Below are positions 53,341 to 54,506 of a stretch of DNA of 64,000 nucleotides, in pieces. Within the stretch, counting starts at the first letter, position 1; every line of letters begins with the position of its first letter. The stretch covers positions 728,182 to 792,181 of the forward strand of contig JAJEKV010000080.1 of the NCBI GenBank assembly GCA_021234155.1, read 5' to 3'. The notes under the pieces were generated by a model. That model was not told the DNA's origin, made no database searches, and saw only the letters and a program-made list of their open reading frames with translations. A program made the translations under genes and the position numbers. The stretch comes from Isoetes taiwanensis (Eukaryota > Streptophyta > Lycopodiopsida > Isoetales > Isoetaceae).

Positions 53341-54506
53341 ATGGCCCGAACCAAACAAACTGCCCGAATAGTAGTGCCAGACAACTTCGTCGGCGCCCAA
53401 GAGCGGGCTGCCCAACAGAAGGCAAGACAAGCTAAGGAGCGAGCCGGGCGGGAGCAAGATCCAGATGCAAACCCTGACGTCCAAGAGGAGGATCGGGAGC
53501 ATCAAGAGGAGGAGGAACGCGCCCAAGAAGTGGAGGAGCAGGAGAACCCTGGGAACCAAAGAGATGGAGGCCAAAATGAGGAGGACGAGAGCGAGGAGAT
53601 GACAGAAGAAATGGTGCAGAAGATAGCAGAGATGGAGAAGGGAGGGAGGGAGAAGAGAGAACTCAAAAGGAAGAGGAAGGAAGAGAAGCTGGAGCACAAG
53701 AGGAGAAAAGAAGAGCGCAAGAAGCGGTGAGAGGAGAAAGGAAAAGACCCCGAGCTGCCCAAGAAACCCCGGCGAAAGACGAAGACAACACCGGCCAAAG
53801 GAGTTGTAATAGCGGAGCGGGAGCTCGAAAGGCCACCCTCACCCTCTGACACTGAGTCAGATGATGAGATAAGGGTCCCCCGCCTAGCTGAAGGCTCGAG
53901 ACCTTCAAATGCAGGTGCCGAAGAGGAGGAGCCGGTAGCAGGAGCACCCCCTTACCCCAAATGGCCCTCACCAAAGAAGCCGGCAGCGGATTCTAAGAAG
54001 CCCAAGCCAGCAAGAGAGTCATACGTACTCAAGCACAAGCAAGAGTACGGGAAGAAATTGAAGGAGTACAACCAGTACATGAAAATGTACGAGGAGTAAA
54101 GGTATTACGAGCAGCACAAAGTCACGTACATGGAGGGAGGCAGGCCGTCCAAGAAGAACACCCTGGAGCCGCCCCCAGAAAGACCAGCACCACCAAAGAA
54201 GCCAATGAAGAGAGAGGCGGATTCTTACTTCGCGAGAGCTGCTCGGGAGATCCGCCATTTTCAGAGGAGCTACGGGTTGCTGATCCCACGAGCCGCCTTC
54301 GCGAGACTCACCCGCGAAATTTTGCAGGAATTCGACAACACCAAGAGAGTAACGATGATATGTTACTCGCACTACAGAAGGCAGCAGAACAAAGAATAGT
54401 TCAACATTTTGAAGACTCTTTAGCATGTGCCCTCCATGCAAAAAGAGTAACTTGTATGCCCAAAGATATGAAATTAGCTAGGTATATTAAAAAGGAAGAT
54501 TTGTAA
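53341..54506 (+). pseudogene. Histone H3-like protein encoded by the retrotransposon (broken copy)
   Basis: The ATG at 53341 opens MARTKQTAR, identical to the first eight residues of mature histone H3, including Lys4. Position 9 is Ile, not Lys. Next come an acidic coiled segment (about residues 36-90), a Lys/Arg-rich stretch (about 100-129), a Pro/Ser/acidic linker, and from about 54205 an H3 histone fold: AREIRHFQ (alpha-N), LLIP..AFARLTREI (alpha-1), then ALQKAAEQRIVQHFEDSLAC and HAKRVTCMPKD..LAR (alpha-2/alpha-3). Total about 388 codons against 135 for H3. Breaks: in-frame TGA 53728-53730, in-frame TAA 54097-54099, and a one-base loss in loop 1 near 54345-54365. Loop 1 otherwise has H3 length. 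EIRHFQ and LLIP recall centromeric CENH3, so the origin may be mixed. Function is unknown; nucleosome incorporation or H3-tail mimicry are possibilities. Confidence 0.88.

What the first reader, a model, noticed from the sequence alone, without database searches (positions are those of the whole stretch)
53341..54506. A retrotransposon-encoded histone H3 homologue with an exact H3 tail
Seen in sequence: an ORF between primer site and gag begins MARTKQTAR and ends, about 285 residues later, in a complete H3-type histone fold (REIRHFQ, LLIP, F.RL.REI, ALQKA, FEDSLACALHAKRVT, MPKD, LAR). Spacing across loop 1 fits H3 to within one lost base. Known: H3 is ~135 residues with a ~40-residue tail. Having both ends of H3 separated by a long charged linker, inside LTRs with a target duplication, implies capture or convergent recruitment of a histone gene. 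I know of no described LTR element with this cargo.
Basis: partly seen in the sequence, partly recalled or inferred. Interest (0 to 1): 0.95.

Follow-up and report, generated by a model that had tools for sequence, protein, structure and literature searches.

The report
Jumping gene carrying its own histone
An LTR retrotransposon (a copy-and-paste jumping gene), likely in a plant, carries a now-broken gene that begins and ends like histone H3, the protein that packages DNA; the gene was likely captured from a host and would let the element change the chromatin that normally silences it.

Summary
Window 51095-63103 is a Ty3/Gypsy-type LTR element with a chromodomain: 1.5-1.7 kb LTRs 96.6% alike, 5-bp target duplication ACAAT, primer site, gag, protease and integrase; reverse transcriptase is missing. 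Between primer site and gag a reading frame starts MARTKQTAR and ends in an H3-type histone fold. Pfam's core-histone model matches the two halves of the fold separately (E 5.8e-7 and 4.6e-11). Over H3 residues 49-135, 45 of 86 compared positions are identical, with no indel besides one frameshift, and the frame ends at H3's last residue. Chance and convergence are rejected. This copy is broken by two in-frame stops and the frameshift; the stops are compatible with a frame intact at insertion (0.68 expected). Only nine residues of the H3 tail remain: K4 is kept, K9 is isoleucine, and a charged linker of about 290 residues follows. A second unknown ORF follows; each ORF has hairpin repeats and a TATAAATAG upstream. 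Best reading: a captured H3-family gene as element cargo, predicted to enter nucleosomes and resist H3K9-based silencing (untested). Main gap: no second copy could be examined; the genome search did not complete in 21 tries.

The parts
51095..52629 (+). 5' LTR, 1535 bp, ends TGTGACGT...ACGTCACA
   Evidence: 96.6% identical to the 3' LTR over 1535 aligned bases, K80 0.035
51090..51094 (+). left target-site duplication ACAAT
   Evidence: the same five bases follow the 3' LTR at 63104-63108
52631..52642 (+). primer-binding site TGGTATCAGAGC, one base after the 5' LTR (initiator-Met tRNA type, recalled)
52836..53127 (+). two copies of a 79-nt inverted-repeat (hairpin) unit, at 52836-52914 and 53049-53127, upstream of ORF1
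53229..53237 (+). TATAAATAG, 112 bp before the ORF1 start: putative internal promoter
   Evidence: one of only two in the window, expected 1.04 by shuffles
53341..54506 (+). ORF1: histone-H3-like gene, about 388 codons; broken by stops at 53728-53730 and 54097-54099 and by a frameshift in loop 1 of the fold (near 54350)
53341..53367 (+). H3 N-terminus MARTKQTAR; the next residue (K9 in H3) is Ile
54217..54396 (+). first half of the H3-type fold (alpha-N, alpha-1, start of loop 1), then off-frame residues
   Evidence: AlphaFold2 of 54100-54396 puts helices at H3 positions 39-58 and 64-76 and a third one over mostly off-frame residues (mean pLDDT 66)
54354..54503 (+). second half of the H3-type fold (alpha-2, loop 2, alpha-3), ends at the H3 C-terminus
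54638..55125 (+). three copies of the same 79-nt hairpin unit (54638, 54841, 55047), between ORF1 and ORF2
55270..55278 (+). TATAAATAG, 102 bp before the ORF2 start
55372..56712 (+). ORF2, unknown protein, one in-frame stop at 56311-56313
   Evidence: no Pfam family for either piece, no homologue of the first 313 aa
57498..58136 (+). gag (Retrotrans_gag PF03732)
   Evidence: E 6.2e-18
58296..58754 (+). aspartic protease (RVP_2 PF08284)
   Evidence: E 2.9e-8
58805..59500 (+). integrase core (rve PF00665), probably truncated at its start
   Evidence: E 3.2e-9; the missing start is judged by eye
59504..59857 (+). integrase C-terminal SH3 and chromodomain (PF24626, PF00385)
   Evidence: E 1.4e-17 and 2.8e-6
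61448..63103 (+). 3' LTR, 1656 bp, followed by target duplication ACAAT

Best explanation
This chromodomain-bearing Ty3/Gypsy-type LTR element carries, between its primer site and gag, a broken reading frame that starts with H3's first nine residues and ends in an H3-type histone fold; it was likely captured from a host H3-family gene, and its product is predicted to enter host nucleosomes and, with isoleucine in place of lysine 9, would resist or block H3K9-based silencing of the element. Shown: the element, the position of the frame, the H3 homology of both ends, the loss of K9, the breaks in this copy. Inferred: the frame was intact when this copy inserted; ORF1 is transcribed from its own upstream TATA element; the fold pairs with H4 and with H3; the long charged linker holds the H3-like tip away from the nucleosome; the K4-containing, K9-lacking tip gives a nucleosome that cannot carry H3K9 methylation and may occupy H3K9 methyltransferases or tail readers. 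I put capture from a host H3-family gene at about 0.9, cargo shared by the element family at about 0.7, and the anti-silencing step at about 0.35.
For: PF00125 on two separate pieces, E 5.8e-7 and 4.6e-11. Solved H3/CENP-A chains matched at 1.3e-5 and 6.1e-12. 45 of 86 positions identical over H3 49-135, collinear, same C-terminus; 9 of 10 four-helix-bundle residues kept (residue list and reference H3 recalled). N-terminal match expected about 1e-7 times by chance. Inside LTRs with a 5-bp duplication and between units of one repeat, two before and three after. No A-run over 4 in 54507-54800 and no shared 8-mer between 53123-53340 and 54507-54640, so no trace there of a separate retrocopy insertion. 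2 stops where a Markov null gives 11, P 0.0014; expected new stops since insertion 0.68, compatible with an intact frame at insertion. TATAAATAG lies 112 bp before ORF1 and 102 bp before ORF2, the only two in 64 kb. Basic runs KRKRK and KRRKEERKKR in the linker fit nuclear entry. K-to-M H3 peptides at K9, K27 and K36 form complexes with their SET-domain enzymes (PMC6562757, passages); Lys-to-Ile changes at K36 and K27 are reported in tumours (PMC11748643 and PMC6337846, passages; PMC6562757).
Against: One copy only, and broken. No relative of ORF1 in the protein collection (none of 5019 candidates at E 1e-3). A search for papers holding both H3K9I and H3K9M found none, so the Ile-at-9 step rests on analogy, and PMC6562757 says the SET domain of EZH2 favours linear hydrophobic side chains, which isoleucine is not. 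The residues after Ile9 do not resemble H3, so a K9 enzyme may not recognise the site. Of 20 recalled DNA-contact positions only 9 are kept, no better than the rest of the fold: the DNA-entry residues 40-45 and R63 are lost; positions 87-90, which guide chaperones, read DMLL in H3 numbering and match no H3 pattern named in PMC9145170. Two TATAAATAG are not rare in themselves (30 of 100 shuffles). The frameshift was not modelled in the decay estimate. No expression data.
Confidence: 0.4

Rival explanations
1. Passive passenger: a host H3-family gene was captured once by this lineage and does nothing for the element; the frame has been decaying since.
For: Two stops and a frameshift in this copy; no known relative; reverse transcriptase is lost as well; DNA-contact positions are kept no better than the rest (9 of 20).
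Against: The number of stops fits decay after insertion only (0.68 expected, 2 seen). A core kept at 45 of 86 positions without indels other than the frameshift, with 9 of 10 recalled bundle residues kept, suggests constraint after capture.
Confidence: 0.25
2. Integration or tethering factor: the histone-fold protein sits in nucleosomes or on H3-H4 and brings the element's own chromodomain integrase or its complex to chosen chromatin.
For: The same element codes for an integrase with a chromodomain, E 2.8e-6, and the HP1 chromodomain binds K9-methylated H3 (PMC3350952, passages). ORF1 carries an H3 tip on a long linker.
Against: The tip lacks K9, the residue that HP1-type chromodomains read when methylated. 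No contact between the two proteins could be tested.
Confidence: 0.15
3. Centromere targeting: ORF1 derives from a plant CENH3 and directs the element, or its chromatin, to centromeres.
For: REIRHFQ and LLIP.AAF recall plant CENH3. Scores against recalled rice CENH3 are nearly those of H3: 35.4 against 36.2 bits for the first half and 53.5 against 56.2 for the second. The first half's best solved match is fission-yeast CENP-A (Cnp1).
Against: Loop 1 has H3 length and no CENH3-type insertion. The second half's best solved match is an H3.3. The N-terminus is H3's, MARTKQTAR.
Confidence: 0.12
4. Chance resemblance or convergence in a low-complexity charged frame.
For: The linker is rich in charged residues and open frames arise easily in purine-rich DNA.
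Against: Two separate pieces pass Pfam's curated cut-off; the N-terminal match is expected about 1e-7 times; 2 stops against 11 in the null.
Confidence: 0.01

Closest known systems
Single H3 genes of DNA viruses: Manila clam xenomavirus, Dishui Lake phycodnavirus 1, Sylvanvirus and others (PMC9145170, section 9 read)
   Same: One H3-like gene without the other histones in a viral genome; three of six have extended N-terminal parts (35, 53 and 68 extra residues); thought likely to form nucleosomes with host histones.
   Different: DNA viruses, not an LTR retroelement. Their folds are 73-87% identical to H3 of a possible host; here 45 of 86 (52%, against recalled Arabidopsis H3.1). Here only the first nine residues of the tail remain, K9 is Ile, and about 290 residues of linker follow.
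Bracovirus histone H4 (CvBV-H4; PMC9145170, passages)
   Same: A host histone recruited by a viral entity, with an extended tail, incorporated into host nucleosomes.
   Different: H4, an insect DNA polydnavirus, experimentally studied.
Chromoviruses, i.e. Ty3/Gypsy elements with an integrase chromodomain (PMC3350952, passages)
   Same: LTRs, gag, protease, integrase and chromodomain.
   Different: Two extra ORFs before gag, one of them histone-like; reverse transcriptase absent in this copy.
Ogre/Tat elements of plants, with an extra ORF1 before gag (recalled, no call)
   Same: An additional ORF between the 5' LTR and gag.
   Different: Ogre ORF1 is not known to be a histone (recalled), and Ogre elements lack a chromodomain (recalled).
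LTR elements that carry pieces of host genes, such as maize Bs1 (recalled, no call)
   Same: Host gene sequence inside an LTR element.
   Different: Bs1 carries a non-histone gene piece (recalled); here an almost complete histone fold plus the H3 tip, with its own putative promoter.

Membership tests
Ty3/Gypsy chromovirus | pair of LTRs with target-site duplication and primer site | tested here: met
Ty3/Gypsy chromovirus | gag, protease, integrase core | tested here: met
   (PF03732, PF08284, PF00665)
Ty3/Gypsy chromovirus | reverse transcriptase and RNase H between protease and integrase | tested here: not met
   50 bp lie between the protease and integrase frames; no YxDD-type motif in any fragment of 30 aa or more of the element. 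This copy is read as a deleted, non-autonomous chromovirus.
Ty3/Gypsy chromovirus | chromodomain at the integrase C-terminus | tested here: met
   PF00385 E 2.8e-6
Ty3/Gypsy chromovirus | clade by reverse transcriptase tree (Tekay, CRM, Reina, Galadriel ...) | not testable with these tools
   reverse transcriptase absent; no plant collection held
Histone H3 family | H3-type histone fold | tested here: met
   on two separate pieces
Histone H3 family | H3 tail of about 40 residues with K4, K9, K14, K27, K36 | tested here: not met
   only ARTKQTAR; K4 kept, K9 is Ile, the rest is replaced by a charged linker
Histone H3 family | length about 135 residues | tested here: not met
   about 388 codons
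Histone H3 family | incorporation into nucleosomes with H4 | not testable with these tools
   recalled H3-H3' bundle residues are kept (9 of 10), recalled DNA contacts less so (9 of 20); no experiment
CENH3/CENP-A | longer loop 1 than H3 | tested here: not met
   H3 length with one broken codon
CENH3/CENP-A | sequence nearer to CENH3 than to H3 | tested here: inconclusive
   bits 36.2 (H3) / 35.4 (rice CENH3) and 56.2 (H3.3) / 53.5, against four reference sequences typed from recall
CENH3/CENP-A | centromere location | not testable with these tools
   no expression or imaging
Captured single viral H3 | histone gene inside the mobile genome | tested here: met
Captured single viral H3 | shared by other members of the element family | tested here: inconclusive
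   The genome search did not complete (21 tries, last). No relative of ORF1 in the protein collection, of its second fold half in viral contigs or phages, of the hairpin repeat (exact pattern) in prokaryote or viral contigs; no plant genomes among these

The most novel reading that the evidence does not exclude
A family of LTR retrotransposons encodes its own nucleosomal histone: an H3 variant whose tip keeps K4 but replaces K9 by isoleucine, made from its own internal promoter, which loads K9-unmethylatable, silencing-resistant nucleosomes or jams the H3K9 methylation machinery. It would be the first retroelement I know of that fights silencing by rewriting the nucleosome itself.
Probability: 0.3. 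Interest if true: 0.96.

Novelty: new variant of a known kind. Interest (0 to 1): 0.77.

Why it matters
Histones are among the most conserved host proteins, and plant transposons are held down by H3K9 methylation (general knowledge). A retroelement that carries an H3-like protein with the H3 tip but without K9 would be a direct molecular answer to that silencing, and would show histone capture outside DNA viruses. It makes testable whether a mobile element can act by changing nucleosomes. Eight paper searches aimed at such cargo or near analogues; in what was listed (25 of 748 papers; 17: 20 of 31; 18: 2 of 2; 34: 1 of 1; 35: 20 of 261; 39: 15 of 50; 54: 1 of 1; 64: 12 of 39) I saw no LTR element with a histone. 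The unlisted papers were not seen, and the library lacks most subscription papers, so this is no proof of absence in print.

Tried and rejected
Chance and convergence: rejected. A host histone retrocopy inserted by itself into this copy: no A-run over 4 bases in 54507-54800, no shared 8-mer between 53123-53340 and 54507-54640, and the same repeat on both sides; an old event is not excluded. Relatives: none in the protein collection for ORF1 or for the first 313 aa of ORF2 (none of 1068 candidates). The second fold half finds 24 proteins among 26 candidates, all 24 listed with Pfam's core-histone domain; of the 18 that I read none looked like a retroelement protein by eye. By eye and recall they are H3 and animal CENP-A proteins, so they say nothing about retroelement relatives. 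Viral contigs: 19 stretches matched a pattern of the second fold half, none encoded a relative. Phages: none. The hairpin repeat as an exact pattern: none in prokaryote and viral contigs. Structure: AlphaFold2 on 54100-54396 alone gives helices at 39-58 and 64-76 in H3 numbering, and a third at 82-96 over mostly off-frame residues, at mean pLDDT 66; Foldseek lists 38 matches, none with E under 0.001 and none a histone, which is a negative result on half a fold. ORF2 gives no usable model (mean pLDDT 38). Rfam (gathering) and tRNA scans of the window: no matches. PHROGs: none at E under 0.15 for either ORF. Hairpin units: conserved among five copies, no clear paired change by eye, no count was run. 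PMC9853562 was opened for K9M and its passages held nothing on it.

A step in third-position composition inside the histone fold (AT at third positions in 26 of 83 codons in the first half, 37 of 50 in the second, Fisher P 2e-6) could mean a two-piece origin, but AT content rises steadily into the 3' flank as well, so I draw nothing from it.

Full report
What is there. The element spans 51095-63103. Its LTRs (51095-52629 and 61448-63103) share TGTGACGT...ACGTCACA ends, are 96.6% identical over 1535 aligned bases (42 transitions, 10 transversions, K80 0.035) and are flanked by ACAAT on both sides; a primer site TGGTATCAGAGC starts one base after the 5' LTR. Pfam finds gag (57498-58136, E 6.2e-18), aspartic protease (58296-58754, E 2.9e-8) and integrase core (58805-59500, E 3.2e-9), then the integrase SH3 and chromodomain (59504-59857, E 1.4e-17 and 2.8e-6). 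Only 50 bp separate the protease and integrase frames, and no YxDD-type motif occurs in any fragment of 30 aa or more, so reverse transcriptase, and by eye the start of integrase, are deleted in this copy. It is therefore read as a deleted chromovirus. The host is probably a plant: this rests on the element type, and on a ribosomal L24e-like frame at 7278-7766 (E 1.2e-28) that looks like the plant protein by recall.

The histone-like frame. ATG 53341 opens MARTKQTAR. With 2892 ATGs on both strands, about 1e-7 such matches are expected by chance. The frame runs about 388 codons to 54506, with stops at 53728-53730 and 54097-54099 and one frameshift in the fold's loop 1. The two halves of the fold lie in different frames and were always tested apart. 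PF00125 matches the first at E 5.8e-7 and the second at 4.6e-11. Solved-structure sequences match the first half at 1.3e-5 (CENP-A of fission yeast, with an H3 close behind at 1.9e-5) and the second at 6.1e-12 (an H3.3). Against H3 numbering (recalled Arabidopsis H3.1), 20 of 48 positions (37-84) and 27 of 50 (86-135) are identical; for 49-135 it is 45 of 86, without any indel apart from the broken codon 85, and the frame stops exactly at residue 135. R49, R69, R72, R83, K115, R116, V117, T118 and M120 are kept; the DNA-entry residues 40-45 and R63 are not; in all, 9 of 20 recalled DNA-contact positions are kept, no better than the rest of the fold. Of ten recalled H3-H3' bundle residues nine are kept.

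Tail and linker. After ARTKQTAR comes Ile in place of K9, and by eye nothing further of the H3 tail. The linker of about 290 residues is strongly charged (37 acidic and 31 basic of 129; 23 and 27 of 122) and holds KRKRK and KRRKEERKKR.

Was the frame coding? Over 53341-54348 it has 2 stops, against 13 and 9 in the two other frames and a mean of 11 in a first-order Markov null (P of 2 or fewer 0.0014). Half the LTR distance predicts about 20 substitutions and 0.68 new stops in ORF1 since insertion; 2 were seen, which a Poisson count gives about 15% of the time (my arithmetic). For ORF2 it is 0.59 expected and 1 seen. The frameshift was not modelled. So the frame may well have been intact when this copy inserted. 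This is inference.

Setting within the element. Five copies of a 79-nt inverted-repeat unit lie two before and three after ORF1. Each folds much better than shuffles (z -3.6 to -6.5; in four of five no shuffle of 200 folds as well, in the fifth one does). TATAAATAG occurs twice in the 64-kb window, 112 bp before the ORF1 start and 102 bp before the ORF2 start. Two occurrences alone are not rare (30 of 100 shuffles); their placement is what suggests two promoter modules. Both starts have A at -3 and G at +4. ORF2 (55372-56712) has no Pfam family, no homologue for its first 313 aa and no usable model. No A-run longer than 4 lies in 54507-54800, and 53123-53340 and 54507-54640 share no 8-mer, so nothing there marks ORF1 as a later, separate insertion.

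H3 or CENH3. Against four reference sequences typed from recall the scores are close (first half 36.2 bits H3, 35.4 rice CENH3, 34.3 Arabidopsis CENH3; second half 56.2 H3.3, 54.3 H3.1, 53.5 and 50.4). Loop 1 has H3 length. I call it an H3-family fold with CENH3-like features in alpha-N and alpha-1, source gene undecided.

How it most likely works. Shown: an H3 fold and an H3 tip inside an LTR element, K9 lost. Inferred: capture, nuclear entry, pairing with H4, a nucleosome bearing a K4-type tip on a long tether that cannot be methylated at K9, and possibly inhibition of H3K9 methyltransferases as with Lys-to-Met H3 (PMC6562757, passages; Lys-to-Ile at other sites in PMC11748643 and PMC6337846, passages). 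That Ile at position 9 inhibits these enzymes is recalled and was not found in print here (which asked for papers holding H3K9I together with H3K9M). Against it: the flanking tail is not H3-like, isoleucine is not a linear side chain, the DNA-entry contacts are lost, and the chaperone-guiding positions do not carry an H3 pattern.

What is known. Single H3 genes occur in several DNA viruses, with folds 73-87% identical to H3 of a possible host and in three of six a longer tail (PMC9145170, section 9), and bracovirus H4 enters host nucleosomes (same paper, passages). In that review's main text 'retrotransposon' occurs 0 times and 'transposable' once, a place I did not view. Ten paper searches were made: eight on cargo and analogues and two on K9 substitutions. 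Several listings were capped (25 of 748, 20 of 31, 20 of 261, 15 of 50 and 12 of 39 shown). In what was listed I saw no LTR element with a histone. I saw listings and abstract beginnings, and passages or one section of six papers (PMC9145170, PMC3350952, PMC11748643, PMC6337846, PMC9853562, PMC6562757).

Limits. The test that matters most, other copies, was not possible: the genome search failed in 21 of 21 tries. The protein collection gave no relative of ORF1 (none of 5019 candidates); plant repeats are probably poorly covered there. The claim that the family carries this cargo is therefore inferred from one copy.

Noticed in passing
52836-52914, 53049-53127, 54638-54716, 54841-54919, 55047-55125: Five copies of a 79-nt inverted-repeat unit (CTCACAGAGTGCGC ... 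GCGCACTGTGTGAG) in the leader of the element, upstream of ORF1 (two) and ORF2 (three); strong predicted hairpins. Possible binding sites, packaging signals or promoter parts.
   Followed up: partly
55372-56712: Second extra ORF before gag, 313 aa then one stop then 132 aa, acidic middle part by eye, no Pfam or PHROGs family and no homologue of the first 313 aa.
   Followed up: partly
54100-54503: Third-codon-position AT jumps from 26 of 83 to 37 of 50 codons between the two halves of the histone fold (P 2e-6); may be regional composition or a two-piece origin.
   Followed up: partly
58755-58804: Reverse transcriptase and RNase H, and by eye the start of integrase, are missing between protease and integrase.
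   Followed up: partly
60422-61217: Insert-like stretch of about 796 bp with 97-nt inverted ends, 79% complementary, in the 3' part of the element: looks like a nested MITE-type transposon.
   Followed up: no
62267-62365: The 3' LTR has 99 bp that the 5' LTR lacks (place from the gap in the LTR alignment), and 20 bp more near its start.
   Followed up: no
7278-7766: Ribosomal protein L24e-like open frame without a visible intron (PF01246, E 1.2e-28), possibly a processed copy.
   Followed up: no
31381-31755 (- strand): Reverse transcriptase fragment (RVT_1, E 7.3e-9), LINE-like by eye, outside the element.
   Followed up: no
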